Of a stretch of 20,974 bases of DNA, positions 398 to 8,199 are shown piece by piece. This stretch comes from a virus, in the IMG/VR virus record IMGVR_UViG_3300037070_000483, positions 1 to 20,974 of that record; one strand, 5' to 3'. A program made the position numbers and the translations under genes. The notes beneath the pieces were generated by a model. The model worked only from the letters and a program-made list of their open reading frames with translations, was not told the origin of the DNA and made no database searches. Position 1 is the first letter of the stretch. Each line of letters begins with the position of its first letter.

Positions 398-2803
398 CTA
401 GCCGTGCGGGCGCTGAATAAACGGGGTGTTCTGGTTCGGGATCAGCCGGATGTCCTTCGGTTCGACCCACGCTTTGATGAGATGGTGCTGTAGTTTGCCG
501 AACGGCGTAGACCAAGCGACTAGGATATAGCGCGTAGTTTCGTCTACTGACCAGACTTCTAGACGGGCACCAGCAGGGATCTCTCCGAACTGTCCTCTAG
601 CCTCAGGTCCAGATTTCGGCGGGTTAGCCTGCATACCTGTCTGAGGGTCCCAGCCTAGGTTCCACCAGTGGTGTAACTCATAGTCGCCATGGTGATCGTA
701 AGGCTCTGCACCAGGCACAGGAATCTTGCCGCCACTGTACTCACCAAAGATAGGCTGGATCGCCTGTACGATAGGAGTTTTGCCTGCGTTTGATAGCTCT
801 AGAATTTTCTGGAAGTCGTCATCTTCGCGCCCGGCGATAACCACCATCACAGGGATGTCGTCTATATTCTGTAGATGTGTATATCGCTTAGACAATGCGC
901 CAGGCAAGTTGAAGAGCCTTTCTTTCTGTGGGTCCCCAGGCATGAACATCGGTCGGTTAACGTACGGGTCAGGCAGCGGGCCAATAGGCTTGACCATCGC
1001 GCCAGGTGACTGAGGTATCGTCAGGTCTTGCATTGTAGCAGGTACAGGTGACGTAGGATCGTAGCCCATCCCTACAGGCACCGGCTGACCAGGCATCGGT
1101 GGTGCTGGTGCAGGCATAGTAGAGGCAGGATCGAATAGCTGCTGCTGTTGTGCCATAGGATCTACAGGAGCCGCCTGACCTGGGGTAGGCGCTGTACCTT
1201 GTGCATCTTCGTCTAGAGGCGTGCTAAGGGCCTTCCAGTACGTCGCTAAAACATGGGAGCAGGGTCGGCCCTCATACTTTTTCCACTGGCGTGTGCGGCC
1301 CCATGCGTACTGATCCCAGTCGCACTCACAGGTCCACTGTGAGATAGCTCGTGAGTTAGGGTCATCGCGTGAGATCTCAGGCTGATAGACACCATGATCT
1401 CCGATCACAGTAGCTACGATGTTGTTGTATCCATTACGGTGTAGTGTGACGCGACCATCCTGGATCATACGCTTAGCTTTAGCCATAACGTCAGGCCATG
1501 ACGCTTCGTGACGCATCTTAGCGACACGATCTAGCTCAAAGCTACGACGCTCTATCTTTTCTGCCGCGTCGGCACGACGATCTGCGTCGCTCTGCTTCTG
1601 ACCTAGCTCATCAGTAATGTAGATCATGGTTGGCACATCTTGTCTGTGATTGCGAACAGGGACCTCGTTCTCTGTCGCCCACTTGATCGCGGCCTTGTAT
1701 CGCATCGGCAAAACTGTGTTCTCAAATATATGAAGCTCTTCCATAGCATTGAGTATATTCTGACGATAGCCTCTAAGGCTAGCTTCTTCTACGCGGCGGT
1801 CTTCGCCCCACGCCAGCATGTCCTTATGATTTTCAATCGCATTGTTTAGTCGCTCGTGCTCTGACTCCATGTTGACCTCAGGATTGAACTCGATAGCCTC
1901 AGGAGGAATTGGCCCAAAGTGAGATACACTACCGCGACTCAATGAGTGTAGCGTGTTATGCGGCGCATCGAGCTTATCGGCGTGTGCGTCAGCCCAAGCT
2001 CCTAGATGAACACCGTGCTCCCTCCACTTAAATTCATCAGGGGCAGGAGGAATATCGTCCCCTGAATGAAGGATGAAGTGGTCTTCATCAGCACCAAAAT
2101 TGTTAGGATCTAATTTGCTAAGATCAATACGATGCCAAGGCGTATCGAAGTTTTCAACTATCCGCCTGTCGCCTAGGTATACTCGGTTATGTCGCGGCAC
2201 CGTGAAGTCACCTTCATACCGGCTCGCTGTAGGGTTGTTAGGATGATCGAAAGGAAGCAAACCATGCTGGTGAATGGTCTCGACTGCTCGCATTGGTGAA
2301 CCGTGATAGAGATAGCGACTCGCATCGCCTTTCCAATCTGTTCCTTGACGCGGCGAACGTAGGATCTTATCCCAATCATCAGGCGCAAAGGCCGCTTGCT
2401 TCTTGTTGACCTCATAAGGCTGTGTGACAAACTTGCTAGGCTCTTCACCTGAACTAGCACGTTCCTTAATGCGGCGCATGATCTCTAGCGCTCGCTTAGA
2501 AGGGTGGGCTGTGAGGAATCCTTTACCTTTGCCTAGGTGATAAGGCACAGGCGTAGTGAACTGGTCAGCCGTAGGGTCTAGATCCTGACCGTTACTGAGG
2601 TCCCTAACCCACCAGTGTGACTCACCTTCATGTGGTAGCTGCATAGGCACAAAACCTTCTTCTTTGCCGCCTAACATATGATAGAGAGCTTCGCTCGCAG
2701 CATAGCAATGACCACCCATTGGATGTGGGTGGTCACGATACTTCGGCTTACGTAAGTCCTCAGAGAGAACGCCTCGTACTGCCTTGATTAGGTGCTGGCT
2801 CAT
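398..2803 (-). CDS. multidomain protein: Cys/His/Asp peptidase-like start, ADP-ribosyltransferase-like domain, SWIM zinc finger
   Basis: 801 aa; SD GGTGAG precedes the ATG, which overlaps the previous stop by 4 bp (ATGA). Residues 30-82 hold GHCYAASEAL (C33), ESHWW (H63) and GQDLDPTADQF (D74/D76), arranged like a papain/NlpC-type Cys-His-Asp site. Residues 163-306 look like an ADP-ribosyltransferase (ART) fold: YLYHGSP (H167), AVETIHQHGLLP, RVYLGD (Y209), ADEDHF (E240) and a closing GPIPPEAIEF. A charged, probably coiled-coil stretch follows (312-440). Residues 490-520 form a SWIM finger: CEC (492-494), then CSH (515-517), CxC-x20-CxH. A Pro/Gln-rich linker (535-615) leads to a C-terminal domain (645-790) I do not recognise. 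SWIM fingers bind nucleic acid or protein; ART folds modify proteins or RNA, or remove RNA 2'-phosphates (KptA/Tpt1). The SWIM call is firm, the ART call good, the peptidase-like call tentative. It could be a virion-carried effector or a nucleic-acid enzyme. Confidence 0.85.
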   Translation of the reverse strand: MSQHLIKAVRGVLSEDLRKPKYRDHPHPMGGHCYAASEALYHMLGGKEEGFVPMQLPHEGESHWWVRDLSNGQDLDPTADQFTTPVPYHLGKGKGFLTAHPSKRALEIMRRIKERASSGEEPSKFVTQPYEVNKKQAAFAPDDWDKILRSPRQGTDWKGDASRYLYHGSPMRAVETIHQHGLLPFDHPNNPTASRYEGDFTVPRHNRVYLGDRRIVENFDTPWHRIDLSKLDPNNFGADEDHFILHSGDDIPPAPDEFKWREHGVHLGAWADAHADKLDAPHNTLHSLSRGSVSHFGPIPPEAIEFNPEVNMESEHERLNNAIENHKDMLAWGEDRRVEEASLRGYRQNILNAMEELHIFENTVLPMRYKAAIKWATENEVPVRNHRQDVPTMIYITDELGQKQSDADRRADAAEKIERRSFELDRVAKMRHEASWPDVMAKAKRMIQDGRVTLHRNGYNNIVATVIGDHGVYQPEISRDDPNSRAISQWTCECDWDQYAWGRTRQWKKYEGRPCSHVLATYWKALSTPLDEDAQGTAPTPGQAAPVDPMAQQQQLFDPASTMPAPAPPMPGQPVPVGMGYDPTSPVPATMQDLTIPQSPGAMVKPIGPLPDPYVNRPMFMPGDPQKERLFNLPGALSKRYTHLQNIDDIPVMVVIAGREDDDFQKILELSNAGKTPIVQAIQPIFGEYSGGKIPVPGAEPYDHHGDYELHHWWNLGWDPQTGMQANPPKSGPEARGQFGEIPAGARLEVWSVDETTRYILVAWSTPFGKLQHHLIKAWVEPKDIRLIPNQNTPFIQRPHG

Positions 2804-3531
2804 GCTATGTACTCACCTGTTATCTTAGAGATCTCAGGGTGAAGACCAGCATTGGCGATCCATTTATAGATGATGTTACTCTCTACGAAGTCACCTTTGC
2901 CGTCTGCCTGGTCACGCTGGCGGCGCTTATGTACTTGCTTCCAGAACTCTTTGGCTCCTGGTGGATCGTACTTGAGTAGAAGCCGCATCTTGTCTTCCTG
3001 CATCTTAGCGTAAGTGATTAGTGCAGGCATCTCCTGGTAGATATCGATGGTACGGTCACGCTCAGGCGGTACGATCCAGTGGTCGATGTCTAGGTCATAG
3101 GCTGAGCGTAGCCCTGCCTGATAGAGTGTATCTTGTGTGATGCCCTCAGGTACGACGTAACACTGTAGAACATGCGTCGTTCCTGGAACCTTAAGGCCGT
3201 CGATATGGTCTACCATGACGCTGATGATGTCTGCTCTTACAACCTCAGGTAGCTTACCCCACTCTACGAATAGACTAACATCGAAGTCACTCTTTTCACT
3301 CCACTGATAGGTTGTGAGAGACCCGGTGAGAACGAGGCGAAACTTTGCCTCCGGGTCTGCCCACCCCCTAGACTTGAGCAAATTGTAGATCGTCTTCGAT
3401 ACCCACTTACGTACTCGTGGCTTGAGCCGTGGAGCAGGTGACTCAGGCTTGTCGAACACATCAGGGTCTAAGCCTGTTCTAATATTATCAAGAATATTAG
3501 AAACCTTTGTGCTTACGTCAGACGGCTGCAT
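2800..3531 (-). CDS. nucleotidyltransferase-fold protein, 243 aa
   Basis: Starts at ATG 3531 behind GGGAG, overlapping the 3' end of the CCA-enzyme fusion by 14 bp; its stop overlaps the next start by 4 bp. Residues 66-88 read LVLTGSLTTYQWSEKSDFDV, the pol-beta-type nucleotidyltransferase signature: a GS pair (70-71) followed by DxD (D82, D84). The third acidic residue expected on a later strand is not obvious; the candidate strand reads THVLQCYVVPEG. The C-terminal part is basic and helical (KQVHKRRQRDQADGKGDF). Such proteins transfer a nucleotide to RNA, protein or a small molecule; the substrate here is unknown. Its neighbours, a CCA-adding enzyme and an ART-like protein, suggest an RNA-directed role, but this is inference. 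Confidence 0.85.
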   Translation of the reverse strand: MQPSDVSTKVSNILDNIRTGLDPDVFDKPESPAPRLKPRVRKWVSKTIYNLLKSRGWADPEAKFRLVLTGSLTTYQWSEKSDFDVSLFVEWGKLPEVVRADIISVMVDHIDGLKVPGTTHVLQCYVVPEGITQDTLYQAGLRSAYDLDIDHWIVPPERDRTIDIYQEMPALITYAKMQEDKMRLLLKYDPPGAKEFWKQVHKRRQRDQADGKGDFVESNIIYKWIANAGLHPEISKITGEYIA

Positions 3532-6500
3532 TGTACTCCCTCGCCATTTGCAGGAGAGTCTCTCGCTGGTTGAGCGCAGGGTTCTCTAGCACCATGTCTA
3601 GCAGGTGCTTGAGGATACCGCCCATGCCTGGTCCTGGTGGTACGCCTAGAGCGATCAGGTCCTTACCATTGATAGCAAGGTTCGCTGCACCGGTAGGATC
3701 AGCCTTAGCGCGGACTGACTGGATCAGGTTACGCATGTTGCCTACGTCATTCTGTGCAGGCTTGCCCTTGAGGTCACCTTCACGCATCAGCATCAGGTCA
3801 TCAGCATGGTCAGGACCTACGCGGTTAATGAACTTACGAGCACCGGCCTCTGATTTAAACTCAGGGAACATATGGTGTCGCACAAGATGTTCTACACGCT
3901 CTGTACGAGCACGAGGGAACTTGAGCCGCTGTAGAGCCTCACGAGTCAGGTCAGCGCCGTGATGCTCGTGGTCGAGACCCTGACCATGCTCATTCTGGTA
4001 GTAGTGTGCCCACCCTTCATCATCGATCCACTTCGCATCAGGCTTACCGATATCATGTAGCATAGCCATGTAGCGTAGATCCTTGTCATCGCTATTCTTG
4101 GCCACATGATCTAGCACCGTCATGGTGTGATCGAATAGCTCCTGGTTATGATACTTGTTCTGCTGATCGAACTGGTGTGTGCGTGAAAGCTCAGGCAGGA
4201 AGTGCTCTAGCACTCCTGTCTCTTGGGCTAGACGGATAGCGTCAGCCGGATGATCTCCACCCATCAGCTTATCTAGCTCTGCCTGGATACGCTCCGCAGG
4301 CAGATGCTTGAGGTTCGGTGCGTTCTTCCGCATAGCAGCCTTAGTCTCTTCGTCAGGGATAAGACCGTGCCTCGACCTCGATGCTAGCCCTCGCATGATA
4401 CGTAGCGGATCGTCAGGGAAAGAGAACTCGCTAGTGGTACGTAGCTTACGCTGTTGCAGATCGTCCCAGCCACCGTAAGGATCGATCAGTTCGCCTCGCT
4501 TGAGGTCGAACGCCATAGCATTGCCTGTGAAGTCACGACGAGATAGGTCTGTCTCGATAGGTAAAGTTGGATCTGTCTTGACCTCAAAATCCTTATGGCC
4601 TGCGCCTGTCGATGCCTCTGTGCGAGGCATGGCGATCTCTACGTCGAAACCTTCCTTGGTACGGTAGCGGAATACGCCGAAAGCTTTACCAGTAAAATCT
4701 ACACGACCAGGAAGTTGCTTAAGGATCTTCTCGATGGTATCAGCGTCAATACCCTGCACCATCAGGTCGATGTCCTTAGGCTCTCGGCCTAGCGCCAGGT
4801 CACGGATAGCTCCACCTACGACGTAGACGTTACCATGATGACCAAGGGCTAACGCAGCGGTATGAGCCGCTGGGTCTGCTACTAGGAGTTGATGTACTTT
4901 CGCAGCCACGTCTTCTGCCGCCAATTTCTGTCGCTTCTTGACTCCACCGAGATCAGTGAATTCTAACATTACTTTCTTGACCTCAAGCTCAGGGTGCATA
5001 TAGTACCAGAGCTTGATTAGGTGACGGATAGTGATAGGGATGTTGGATGTCTCCATGATCCTTAGCTCACCGTCAGGGAAGTAGTAACCTTCGACTACAC
5101 CGAATGTGTTGTAGTCAGGAGCCTGGATGTCCTGCGGGCCATCACCAGGGTGGCCTACGTACAGCTTATCACCTTTCTCGTCGTAGAGCCAGGGGATCGG
5201 TCCAGCGATAGGAGCCTCAGCCGTTAACTTGAACTGCTGTACCCATCCTGGCCGTTGTACCTTAGCATCCCAGTCGTCATAACCCGGAACCGTATTCCAT
5301 CTCGCTGGCTGATGAGTCTGACCCTTGGATACCTGCTTACGCCACTCCATCATTTTCTGCCGCGCTTTCATGTAAGGCTCGGTAGCACGAGGATGAGTAT
5401 GTGGGAGCCGGTCTCCGTCACCGAAGTGAACGACCGGAGATCCAAAATTTGAAAAGATGACTTCGCCTCCGTACGCACCATCAGCGAATAGACGATTCGA
5501 TGCGTCATCTGTGCCGTGGTGATCGCCTGGATTCCCCACCCATCGGATTTTACCATCTTGTTCATAAAAAGGAACGCGAATAGCGTCATCGCCAGTATAG
5601 TTGTCGGCCCATACTCTTTCGCCGCCTTCTATATTTCCGTCATTTGGGACGCTGGGATTATTCCAGTCGTTGCTAAATCTAAATGAGTCTACCCAGCCTG
5701 GCTGATGGACCATCTTTGCCCATTCTGACCCGTATCCATCTACCACTAAGTCACCTGTATAGTTGTCATAATCTGTGCGTGTATCTAACTCAGGTGTCTC
5801 GCCTCGCTTGATCTGATTCCGAAAATCGATCATCTTCTTGCGAGCCTTCATAAGAATCGGCGTGGCGCGAGGATCGTCATTCGGCAGTACATCACCTTTA
5901 CCAAAGGTATAGTGAATCTGTGGCGGACCAAAGTTAGAATAGACAACCTCGCCAGAGATCCATTCCTCTTCCTCTAGTACCGAGGTAGCGTGCCAGTCTC
6001 CTGGCGTACCCATCCATTTAACCTGAAAATTTTTATCCATGTAGAAAGGAACGCGGATAGCATCCTCGCCTATATAGGTGTCCATCCACTTAGCATTCGG
6101 ATTGTCACGCTGAGAGCCTGATGCCCAATCGGTATAGCTGCCCGCCTCTCTTCCTACGGCGGATAGTCTAAATGCGTTAGCCCATCCCTCAGGCCGAGGA
6201 TTGTTGTAGTAATTGTGAGCAGTGTTATCAGGATTGTGTTTAAAATCAATCATCTTACGCTTAGCAAGATTCATAAGAGTAGAGTAACGAGGATCAGTTG
6301 GCTCTGCGTGGGTTACAGTTAGCGAACGCCCTATGAGATGAATTTGCGGAGGACCAAATGTTGTGAATACAACTTCGCCAGAATCTCGTGAAAAATCTGG
6401 ATTTACATTTGTACCATAAACATCAGAGTGCATTCCACCTGGGTTACCAATCCACTTTACAGGCAAAATTGGAGACTTGTCATTCTGCCAATCTGCTAGA

Positions 6501-7267
6501 AAGGGGATTCGAATAGCGTCGTCACCTGAGTAGGTGTCGAACCAGTTATCTTTGTTCACGCGCTCCGAGACTTTGCCGGTAGTGATACCAGGCTCGCCAC
6601 CAGGACGAGAGACCTCGTTATAGCCTGCTGGTAGCTGTGCGTCAAGATCGACTACAGGTGCCGCAGGCTTCGGTGGATTCTCATGGTGAGCGTACATCTG
6701 ATGTACAAGCCACTCAGCCTGGTTCTCTAGCTCGATACCACAGTGGCGGCACTTCATCGGAGTGTCTTTGAAATCAATCGAAGGCTCGTTACCGCGTACA
6801 GGGTCCTGGAACCCAGGATAGTCGGTGTCGAGAGAGTCTTCTGCCCATTCCTTGTTCATCCAGTCCATTACGCCAGGATTACGTTCACCGATACCTACTG
6901 CTTCGGCTGTCTTGTTCCAGGGAATGAGGTTACCTTCACGATCCACGATCTGCTTCAAGAGCATATTGTGTTCGGAGCACCACTTCTTAAGGATCTTGCC
7001 GAGAATCTTGAGAGCAACGCCTGAGTGCAGTACAGTGAATGTGCAATGCCAATTGTGCTCAATCTCCATTGTACCGGCTGCGTCCTCATGTGGGACCTGC
7101 TCGTCTACAAATAATTTATCCTCAGAGACTACCCAAGTCTTTTTCTCAGGCGCTCTGTAAGGCTTGGCGGTGTCTGTATAGTCACGCTGGAAAGCTTTGG
7201 CCTGTGGTTCTTCGCCAGGGTATGCATCCCCGCCCCAACCAAAGTCTGATGTGATAAGATTCGCCAT
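3518..7267 (-). CDS. giant fusion: C2H2 finger, four tandem repeat modules and a tRNA CCA-adding enzyme with HD domain
   Basis: 1249 aa. Residues 1-165 are of unknown type. C173/C176/H189/H194 form a C2H2 finger (CRHC ... HQMYAHH). Residues 242-760 hold three clear repeat units and a degenerate fourth. Residues 782-1249 form a full tRNA nucleotidyltransferase: head VVGGAIRDLALGREPKDIDL (D832, D834 as the metal ligands), the class II signature RRDFTGNAMAFD (910-921), DPLRIMRG (953-960), AERIQAELDKLM (991-1002), then an HD domain with FDHT (H1047), LHDIGK (H1071-D1072), HEHHG (1100-1104) and VRHHM. The family adds or repairs the 3' CCA of tRNA, and many bacterial members carry an HD phosphohydrolase; family members are usually around 400-500 aa, so roughly 780 extra residues are fused here. 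The ATG at 7267 has no SD, and a terminator-like hairpin ends 5 nt upstream, so the start or its control is unusual. It heads a three-gene overlapping cassette. Confidence 0.93.
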   Translation of the reverse strand: MANLITSDFGWGGDAYPGEEPQAKAFQRDYTDTAKPYRAPEKKTWVVSEDKLFVDEQVPHEDAAGTMEIEHNWHCTFTVLHSGVALKILGKILKKWCSEHNMLLKQIVDREGNLIPWNKTAEAVGIGERNPGVMDWMNKEWAEDSLDTDYPGFQDPVRGNEPSIDFKDTPMKCRHCGIELENQAEWLVHQMYAHHENPPKPAAPVVDLDAQLPAGYNEVSRPGGEPGITTGKVSERVNKDNWFDTYSGDDAIRIPFLADWQNDKSPILPVKWIGNPGGMHSDVYGTNVNPDFSRDSGEVVFTTFGPPQIHLIGRSLTVTHAEPTDPRYSTLMNLAKRKMIDFKHNPDNTAHNYYNNPRPEGWANAFRLSAVGREAGSYTDWASGSQRDNPNAKWMDTYIGEDAIRVPFYMDKNFQVKWMGTPGDWHATSVLEEEEWISGEVVYSNFGPPQIHYTFGKGDVLPNDDPRATPILMKARKKMIDFRNQIKRGETPELDTRTDYDNYTGDLVVDGYGSEWAKMVHQPGWVDSFRFSNDWNNPSVPNDGNIEGGERVWADNYTGDDAIRVPFYEQDGKIRWVGNPGDHHGTDDASNRLFADGAYGGEVIFSNFGSPVVHFGDGDRLPHTHPRATEPYMKARQKMMEWRKQVSKGQTHQPARWNTVPGYDDWDAKVQRPGWVQQFKLTAEAPIAGPIPWLYDEKGDKLYVGHPGDGPQDIQAPDYNTFGVVEGYYFPDGELRIMETSNIPITIRHLIKLWYYMHPELEVKKVMLEFTDLGGVKKRQKLAAEDVAAKVHQLLVADPAAHTAALALGHHGNVYVVGGAIRDLALGREPKDIDLMVQGIDADTIEKILKQLPGRVDFTGKAFGVFRYRTKEGFDVEIAMPRTEASTGAGHKDFEVKTDPTLPIETDLSRRDFTGNAMAFDLKRGELIDPYGGWDDLQQRKLRTTSEFSFPDDPLRIMRGLASRSRHGLIPDEETKAAMRKNAPNLKHLPAERIQAELDKLMGGDHPADAIRLAQETGVLEHFLPELSRTHQFDQQNKYHNQELFDHTMTVLDHVAKNSDDKDLRYMAMLHDIGKPDAKWIDDEGWAHYYQNEHGQGLDHEHHGADLTREALQRLKFPRARTERVEHLVRHHMFPEFKSEAGARKFINRVGPDHADDLMLMREGDLKGKPAQNDVGNMRNLIQSVRAKADPTGAANLAINGKDLIALGVPPGPGMGGILKHLLDMVLENPALNQRETLLQMAREYNAAV
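4988..5200 (-). repeat. degenerate fourth repeat module next to the CCA-enzyme domain
   Basis: Residues 690-760. Only part of the pattern remains: IPWLYDEKGDKLYVGHPGDG matches the R/K-W-x-G-N-P-G segment, and TFGVVEGYYFPDGELRI matches the SGEVV...FGPP strand pair. The DAIR core is missing. It ends in a helix (RHLIKLWYYMHPE) that takes the place of KARKKMIDFR, and it may act as the hinge to the enzyme domain. Confidence 0.55.
5219..5611 (-). repeat. protein repeat module 3 in the CCA-enzyme fusion
   Basis: Residues 553-683. It shares WADNYTGDDAIRVPF, RWVGNPGDHH, GGEVIFSNFGSPVVH and KARQKMMEWR with the other modules, and closes with PGWVQQFKLTA. The DNA of the modules has diverged much more than the protein, which points to an old duplication under selection. 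Confidence 0.8.
5672..6088 (-). repeat. protein repeat module 2 in the CCA-enzyme fusion
   Basis: Residues 394-532. It shares WMDTYIGEDAIRVPF, KWMGTPGDWH, SGEVVYSNFGPPQIH and KARKKMIDFR with module 1, and closes with PGWVDSFRFS. The linker after KMIDFR holds an extra DYDNYTGDLVVDGYGSEW segment that partly echoes the module start and makes this unit the longest. Confidence 0.8.
6158..6544 (-). repeat. protein repeat module 1 in the CCA-enzyme fusion
   Basis: Residues 242-370. Key positions: WFDTYSGDDAIRIPF, KWIGNPGGMH, SGEVVFTTFGPPQIH, a basic helix ending KRKMIDF, then the unit-closing GWANAFRLSA. It aligns with modules 2 and 3 without much effort. The W-x-D-x-Y-x-G-[DE]-DAIR core and the NPG turn look like a small beta-rich domain. 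I do not recognise the family. Confidence 0.8.
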
Positions 7268-7271
7268 AGAT

Positions 7272-7309
7272 AAACAAAAAGCCCAATAGATATGCTCTAT
7301 CTATTAGGC
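7272..7309 (-). terminator. intrinsic terminator or attenuator just before the CCA-enzyme fusion
   Basis: On the minus strand GCCTAATAGATA pairs with TATCTATTGGGC around a 5-nt loop (12 bp, one U.G wobble) and is followed directly by TTTTTGTTT. The wobble becomes a C.A mismatch on the other strand, which fits minus-strand function. It ends 5 nt before the ATG at 7267. It should stop transcripts from the small-gene operon, or act as a conditional attenuator for the cassette downstream. Confidence 0.75.
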
Positions 7310-7330
7310 GACCGCTCTCTTAATAAGAAA

Positions 7331-7403
7331 TGCCAGCCAGGCATATCCCTGTCTGTTTGAAACCGAATGGATTGGGAACCTTCGGAGACACACCTAGCTG
7401 GCA
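7331..7403. ncRNA. candidate structured RNA with a 7-bp closing stem and two inner hairpins
   Basis: TGCCAGC (7331-7337) and GCTGGCA (7397-7403) pair perfectly and enclose 59 nt. Inside are CAGG/CCTG (7338-7351) and CCGAA/TTCGG (7363-7385), the latter extended by GG/CC, giving a three-way junction. The strand is uncertain because all the pairs are Watson-Crick. The total of 73 nt matches tRNA size, but no TTCRA T-loop or 7-nt anticodon loop is present. It may be a regulatory aptamer or a small RNA. Confidence 0.4.
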
Positions 7404-7476
7404 GTTCCATAGTAGTGGGTTAAGTACACACCACCCGTCATCGTACAAGCTAGTAGGATCACCACCCCATTACTTC

Positions 7477-7524
7477 GGCTTCGGTTCCTCTCATCTATTG
7501 AGGGACCGGAGCCTTCATAATTTT
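7477..7524 (+). terminator. 14-bp hairpin, best read on the plus strand
   Basis: GGCTTCGGTTCCTC (7477-7490) pairs with GAGGGACCGGAGCC (7500-7513) around a 9-nt loop. Read as plus-strand RNA it has 14 pairs including two G.U wobbles; read as minus-strand RNA the same positions become C.A mismatches. TTCATAATTTT follows on the plus strand, a weak U-tract. It could be a plus-strand terminator of a small RNA, or a barrier between the convergent sides. Confidence 0.4.
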
Positions 7525-7532
7525 AGGCTACC

Positions 7533-7867: not shown

Positions 7868-8029
7868 TTACTTGACGCTCTTCTTCTGCATCAGGTCACA
7901 TTGGGGGCAAGCGTACACTACGAGCCGTCGCGTTACAGTTTTCTTTTCAAAAACGTACATCTTCGTAGGAATCTTCCCTGGCTTGACACACAGGCTACAA
8001 TCTACGTTAGACTCCTTGTAGGTTCCCAT
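7868..8029 (-). CDS. zinc-ribbon protein, 53 aa
   Basis: A short gene in a stretch that looks empty in long-ORF views. The product starts MGTYKESNVDCSLC and ends ACPQCDLMQKKSVK. Two CxxC knuckles (C11/C14 and C41/C44) are separated by a basic beta-like segment (KMYVFEKKTVTRRLVVYA), a typical zinc ribbon. The ATG at 8029 overlaps the stop of the preceding gene as TAATG, and AAGGCG lies 7 nt upstream, so translation is probably coupled. Zinc ribbons of this kind bind nucleic acid or act as protein adaptors; the specific role is unknown. Confidence 0.8.
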   Translation of the reverse strand: MGTYKESNVDCSLCVKPGKIPTKMYVFEKKTVTRRLVVYACPQCDLMQKKSVK

Positions 8030-8199
8030 TAGTTCGCCTTACGGGAAGGGCTACCGCCTGCTCCTGGCACTGATCCGATAGCCACTGAGTATACTCGCTT
8101 CCACTCACCGGATTCATCTGGGGCGGTAGTCGGAGAGTAGGTCAACTCACGCTTGCCGGTCTTTATATTCTTCCATTCATATTGAGCTACAAAACTCAT
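8029..8199 (-). CDS. hypothetical protein, 56 aa, weakly like a cysteine-free FmdB-type protein
   Basis: Another short gene, starting at ATG 8199 as TAATG with the stop of the 139-aa gene and ending as TAATG with the zinc-ribbon start. It begins MSFVAQYEWKNIKTGKRELT and ends WKRVYSVAIGSVPGAGGSPS followed by RKAN. The aromatic start and the glycine-rich basic end recall small phage FmdB-like proteins, but the cysteines of that family are absent. The function is unknown. Confidence 0.72.
   Translation of the reverse strand: MSFVAQYEWKNIKTGKRELTYSPTTAPDESGEWKRVYSVAIGSVPGAGGSPSRKAN

What the first reader, a model, noticed from the sequence alone, without database searches (positions are those of the whole stretch)
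7268..7532. Riboswitch-like leader: aptamer-like fold, terminator, then start codon
Seen on the minus strand in order: a hairpin, a 73-nt element closed by a 7-bp perfect stem with two inner hairpins, and a strong terminator hairpin with T-tract 5 nt before the CCA-fusion ATG. Known: transcription-attenuating riboswitches and tRNA-sensing leaders have this layout. Inference: expression of the CCA cassette may respond to a ligand or tRNA state. A plus-strand small RNA would explain the same stems.
Basis: partly seen in the sequence, partly recalled or inferred. Interest (0 to 1): 0.66.

Follow-up and report, generated by a model that had tools for sequence, protein, structure and literature searches.

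The report
Conserved phage RNA ending in terminator
Just before a large gene in an uncultivated phage, probably one of actinobacteria, lies a folded non-coding RNA with its own stop signal, kept at the same place in at least four related phages and absent from RNA catalogues; it probably limits transcription of the next gene, but nothing ties it to tRNA or to a ligand.

Summary
On the minus strand, 7532-7268 folds far better than chance (z -5.45). It holds a 5' hairpin, a 73-nt element closed by a 7-bp stem, and a strong terminator just before the ATG at 7267. It is more than a chance fold. Four related phage contigs (L002, L006, L007, L008) carry a non-coding RNA of about 165-185 nt at the same place, between homologues of the same two genes. 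Shared features are a GGnGGUGAUC block, a hairpin, a long P3 stem and a diverged terminator at the ATG. In the three closest, P3's loop can pair with the 5' strand as a pseudoknot. P3 and the pseudoknot keep pairing through compensatory changes. Substitutions and indels are not codon-like, so the element is RNA rather than a small gene. Rfam and ARAGORN find nothing. The window's copy is much diverged: the relatives' model only just finds it. The tRNA/CCA reading fails: none of the four relatives has a CCA domain or a detected tRNA, and the one phage that shares the CCA domain lacks the gap. Best reading: an intercistronic transcription attenuator. A stand-alone phage sRNA is a close rival. 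A ligand-sensing riboswitch is untested and unsupported.

The parts
7466..7527 (-). 5' hairpin (CCU...AUUAU GAA GGCU...AGCC GAA GUAAU...GGGG); only in the window's copy, overlaps the pseudoknot 5' strand
   Evidence: MFE fold; not seen in relatives
7474..7482 (-). candidate 5' strand of pseudoknot PK1 (GAAGCCGAA), complementary to the P3 loop
   Evidence: p=0.055 in the window, and the strand is also used by the 5' hairpin
7456..7466 (-). GGTGGTGATCC, the best conserved block (GGnGGTGATC in all five phages); complementary to the 3' end of 16S rRNA (GGAUCACC...), with no start codon at usual spacing in relatives
   Evidence: 16S complement from general knowledge
7411..7436 (-). P2-like hairpin
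   Evidence: MFE fold; relatives have a P2 hairpin at the same place
7331..7403 (-). P3: 73-nt element closed by TGCCAGC/GCTGGCA, extended inside by CTAGG/CCTGG
   Evidence: relatives have a 15-17 bp P3 at the same place
7359..7367 (-). candidate 3' strand of PK1 (TTCGGTTTC) in the P3 loop
7276..7309 (-). intrinsic terminator hairpin (7309-7281) plus T-tract
   Evidence: diverged terminator at the same place in L002, L006, L007, L008
7533..7808 (-). upstream gene (91 aa, unknown); positional counterpart of the relatives' 65-68 aa gene
3518..7267 (-). downstream gene (1249 aa): GWGGDAYP N-terminus and repeats, C-terminal CCA-adding domain (PolyA_pol, RNA-binding, HD); no clear Shine-Dalgarno

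Best explanation
The gap encodes a structured non-coding RNA of a new, unnamed kind. It is transcribed with the late genes (minus strand) and ends at an intrinsic terminator a few bases before the next ORF. Because the terminator stands between upstream late transcription and the next gene, it most likely works in cis as an attenuator: most polymerases stop there, releasing an RNA that ends in the folded element, and a fraction reads through into the 1249-aa gene and what follows. Whether the fold upstream (P2, P3, the GGnGGUGAUC block and, in relatives, a pseudoknot) changes that fraction is inference. Shown: structure above chance, conservation at the same place, compensatory changes, non-coding pattern, terminator at the ATG. 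Inferred: termination, read-through, regulation.
For: Fold z: window -5.45, L006 -6.10, L008 -4.93, L002 -2.77. Same syntenic gap in L002, L006, L007, L008. P3 has three positions with both-sided changes between L002 and the others, and PK1 two to three among L006/L007/L008. PK1 complementarity beats shuffles in L006 (p=0.0007) and L008 (p=0.0003), less in the window (0.055), not in L007 (0.13) or L002 (0.44). Terminator hairpins of different sequence but the same place and T-tract in all five. Not protein: substitutions 5/5/5 and 5/8/4 by codon position, 1-nt indels, frame not kept in L006. In the window the relatives' model has its best hit of 21 kb exactly in the gap, right strand, though weak (10.3 bits, E 0.38). 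Weak SD before the downstream ATG in the window, L006 and L007.
Against: Five sequences only, three of them close, so the covariation is thin. The window's copy shares little sequence with the others; its PK1 is only borderline and its 5' strand is also used by the strong 5' hairpin. No conserved antiterminator: each copy has some pairing that would compete with the terminator, but with different partners. L004 has both flanking genes and lacks the RNA, so it is dispensable. No transcript data.
Confidence: 0.5

Rival explanations
1. A stand-alone phage small RNA with its own promoter at the 3' end of the upstream gene, ending at the terminator and acting in trans (on host or phage mRNA, a protein or the ribosome); the next gene is merely its neighbour.
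For: A promoter-like site sits just before the first helix in L007 (TTGTTA-16-CATAAT, 9/12) and L002 (TCTACA-18-AATAAT, 9/12); L006 and L008 have AATAAT and the window TAAAAT at the same spot. Unit length of about 165-225 nt; lost as a unit in L004.
Against: The -35 is poor in L006, L008 and the window, and the scan finds no promoter on the right strand in the window; the AT-rich stretch overlaps stop codons and L004, without the RNA, also has one. The position hard against the ATG is kept in all five.
Confidence: 0.32
2. A ligand- or tRNA-sensing riboswitch controlling the CCA gene.
For: Layout (fold, terminator, ATG) and pseudoknot potential.
Against: Relatives keep the RNA before a gene with no CCA domain and have no PF01743 in their contigs (contigs incomplete) and no tRNA in the loci read; no Rfam riboswitch or T-box; no conserved switch helix.
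Confidence: 0.05
3. A 3'-end or mRNA-protecting element of the upstream transcript (terminator plus exonuclease-blocking fold), with no regulation of the next gene.
For: Stable stem plus terminator after the upstream gene; such a fold would protect a 3' end.
Against: The conserved GGnGGUGAUC block and pseudoknot potential are more than a plain terminator needs.
Confidence: 0.13

Closest known systems
Transcription-attenuating riboswitch leaders (general)
   Same: Structured RNA followed by an intrinsic terminator next to the start codon
   Different: No known aptamer class matches; no conserved antiterminator; intercistronic in a phage late operon; no tie of the downstream gene to a metabolite
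HK022 put RNA (phage RNA acting in cis on RNA polymerase; PMC9378689, abstract only)
   Same: A phage RNA element that could change termination downstream of itself
   Different: put suppresses pausing and termination in early genes; here the element sits in the late region directly before one terminator; homology to put was not tested beyond the Rfam scan
VrrA (RF01456), Vibrio sRNA
   Same: Long GC-rich hairpin followed by a terminator; sub-threshold match in L007 (33.7 bits, cut-off 50) and L006 (21.4)
   Different: Below the gathering score, no such match in L008, L002 or the window, different host group; most likely a generic hairpin-terminator match
trpB ncRNA motif (RF04312)
   Same: Sub-threshold match over P3 and terminator in the window (28 bits, cut-off 59)
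   Different: Half the cut-off; not found in the relatives

Membership tests
T-box / tRNA-sensing leader | Match to the T-box covariance model | tested here: not met
   No match at gathering score in the window or at E<=10 in the gap
T-box / tRNA-sensing leader | Downstream gene for aminoacylation or tRNA supply, kept with the RNA | tested here: not met
   CCA domain is in the window only; relatives with the RNA lack PF01743 in their (incomplete) contigs
Known riboswitch class | Match to any Rfam riboswitch model | tested here: not met
Known riboswitch class | Mutually exclusive terminator and antiterminator | tested here: inconclusive
   Competing pairings exist in each copy (p 0.018-0.45 for the 3' arm) but with different partners
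Known riboswitch class | Ligand binding | not testable with these tools
   Needs in-line probing
tRNA or tmRNA | ARAGORN detection | tested here: not met
Intrinsic terminator | GC-containing hairpin followed by a T-tract, same place in homologues | tested here: met
Structured non-coding RNA | Compensatory changes and absence of coding signal | tested here: met
   few sequences, hand alignment
Phage sRNA gene | Own promoter and discrete transcript | tested here: inconclusive
   Promoter-like site in L007 and L002 only, none on the right strand in the window; transcript not testable

The most novel reading that the evidence does not exclude
A phage non-coding RNA that touches the ribosome: its best conserved block, GGnGGUGAUC(C), is an unusually long complement of the 16S rRNA 3' end with no consistent start codon behind it, held next to a fold ahead of a terminator. 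It could capture 30S subunits, in trans as a decoy or in cis so that ribosome occupancy sets read-through into the next late gene.
Probability: 0.1. Interest if true: 0.75.

Novelty: new variant of a known kind. Interest (0 to 1): 0.42.

Why it matters
Structured RNAs in late operons of uncultivated actinobacterial-type phages are little charted, and this one has a fixed position, pseudoknot potential, a ribosomal-RNA complement and a terminator at a start codon, with no catalogue match. If it controls read-through it would show how such phages set the dose of late proteins; if it is a free sRNA it would be a new phage effector RNA.

Tried and rejected
Rfam at gathering score and at loose E-values in the window and four relatives: nothing above cut-off; VrrA, trpB and microRNA matches judged generic hairpins. 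tRNA-like reading of the 73-nt element: ARAGORN negative. Small-protein reading (GGD... frame open in L007, L008, L002 and partly the window): rejected, substitutions not codon-like overall, 1-nt indels, frame broken in L006, no common start codon. Plus-strand sRNA: no T-tract on that side, G-U pairs suit the minus strand. DNA similarity to named phages: none. Close-relative searches with the CCA fusion and the 91-aa protein found nothing; portal, downstream-protein and phosphoesterase alignments gave only the same small clade. RNA model over 20 related records: only L002, L007 and L008 of those; a wider set of loci gave no new member. Conserved antiterminator: not found. Literature searches on phage structured or small RNAs, phage CCA enzymes and put RNA brought nothing on this element (titles and abstracts only).

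Full report
What the window is. The window is a 20,974-nt virus record with late genes on the minus strand: terminase, portal (PHROG 2833), a phosphoesterase, a dNMP kinase, then small genes, then a 1249-aa protein with a C-terminal CCA-adding module. Terminase and portal are mostly 33-45% identical to Mycobacterium, Gordonia and Rhodococcus phages, and a portal relative lies in a Solirubrobacter genome, so an actinobacterial host is likely but not shown.

The observation. The gap 7532-7268 folds on the minus strand at -101.7 kcal/mol against -75.9 for shuffles (z -5.45). The hairpin, the 73-nt element (7403-7331, TGCCAGC/GCTGGCA) and the terminator (7309-7281 plus T-tract) are all there. The plus strand folds nearly as well, but only the minus strand has the T-tract.

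Relatives. Portal searches found a small clade. In L002, L006, L007 and L008 the same place, between the homologue of the small upstream gene and the homologue of the N-terminus of the 1249-aa protein (GWGxDAYP), holds a non-coding gap of about 165-185 nt. L004 has both genes and no such RNA. More distant phages (L013, L014, L018, L023 and others) have an additional domain or gene there and no gap. Scans with the downstream protein, the phosphoesterase and an RNA pattern returned only the same contigs with the RNA, as did a covariance model over 20 related records.

Anatomy. Common to the relatives: a 5' strand; the block GGnGGTGATC(C/T); hairpin P2; long stem P3 (15-17 bp); in L006-L008 the motif GCATTCTATTAT; a terminator whose T-tract runs to the ATG. 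In L006, L007 and L008 the P3 loop can pair with the 5' strand (AGAGCGGT/ACCGCTCT; GAAGAA(U)CGGU/ACCGUUCUUC). This pairing beats shuffles in L006 (p 0.0007) and L008 (p 0.0003), is borderline in the window (0.055) and not significant in L007 (0.13) and L002 (0.44). P3 keeps pairing with three both-sided changes between L002 and the rest, PK1 with two to three within L006-L008, and terminator stems differ in sequence but not in place. The counts were made on a hand alignment, so they lean towards the structure.

Not a gene. A frame beginning at GGTGAT is open through L007, L008 and L002, but substitutions between the copies are 5/5/5, 5/8/4 and 4/6/11 by codon position, most indels are single bases, L006 breaks the frame, and there is no common start. 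The third comparison alone would look mildly codon-like; the others and the indels do not.

The window's copy. It has drifted far. The relatives' model, run without filters, has its best hit of the whole window in this gap on the right strand, but at only 10.3 bits, E 0.38. The block GGTGGTGATCC occurs once in the window, at the right place (0.06 expected). Its 5' hairpin, absent in relatives, competes with the pseudoknot strand. That it is a homologue therefore rests on position, order of parts and the block, and is likely rather than proven.

Mechanism. The terminator hairpin ends 13 nt before the ATG, so any transcript from upstream must pass it; the downstream start has a weak Shine-Dalgarno in the window, L006 and L007. 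An intercistronic attenuator is the simplest reading. A free sRNA is a close rival, because L007 and L002 have promoter-like sites right before the first helix; but the window has none on that strand and the AT-rich stretch overlaps stop codons. Competing pairings for the terminator arms exist in each copy, but with different partners, so a conserved switch is not shown.

CCA and tRNA. None of the relatives with the RNA has the PolyA_pol domain in its contig or a tRNA in the locus read; their downstream protein matches only parts of the window protein outside the CCA module. L009, which shares the CCA domain and has tRNAs, has overlapping genes there and no RNA. Contigs are partial, so absence elsewhere in those genomes is not proven; but the RNA goes with the N-terminal protein, not with CCA addition.

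16S complement. GGAGGUGAUCC (L002, L007) is the full reverse complement of the 16S rRNA 3' end GGAUCACCUCC (general knowledge); the window and L006 agree with it at 10 of 11 positions and L008 at 9. No start codon follows at usual spacing in L006-L008, and in L002 the block pairs with AUCACC inside the RNA. It may be structural; I keep ribosome binding as the novel case at 0.1.

Verdict. A real, conserved, structured non-coding RNA of unknown family; attenuator most likely, sRNA next; riboswitch for tRNA or CCA unsupported.

Noticed in passing
3518-7267 (-): CCA-adding enzyme module fused to the end of a 1249-aa protein with a repeated domain (NWFDTYSGDDAIR...); a comparable fusion in L009 only (47% identity over the module), other relatives have the N-terminal part without it.
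   Followed up: partly
398-2803 (-): 801-aa protein with a SWIM-like zinc finger near cut-off and a YLYHGS stretch that looks like an ADP-ribosyltransferase motif (from memory, not tested).
   Followed up: no
L021:4293-4350 and L052:728-790: Another GGGGGTGATCCG followed closely by a strong terminator (GCCCGCCATTTTGGCGGGC) in a related phage, behind two tiny ORFs; not matched by the RNA model.
   Followed up: no
7281-7309 and 7493-7501 (-): The loop of the window's 5' hairpin (CAATAGAT) is an 8-nt perfect complement of the terminator's 3' arm (ATCTATTG) and nearly repeats its 5' arm; a possible antiterminator seen only in this copy.
   Followed up: partly
7868-8199 (-): Two small genes (53 and 56 aa) fill what looked like a second gap; the 56-aa one (QYEWKN...GAGGSPSR) has counterparts in L002, L006, L007 and L008.
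   Followed up: partly
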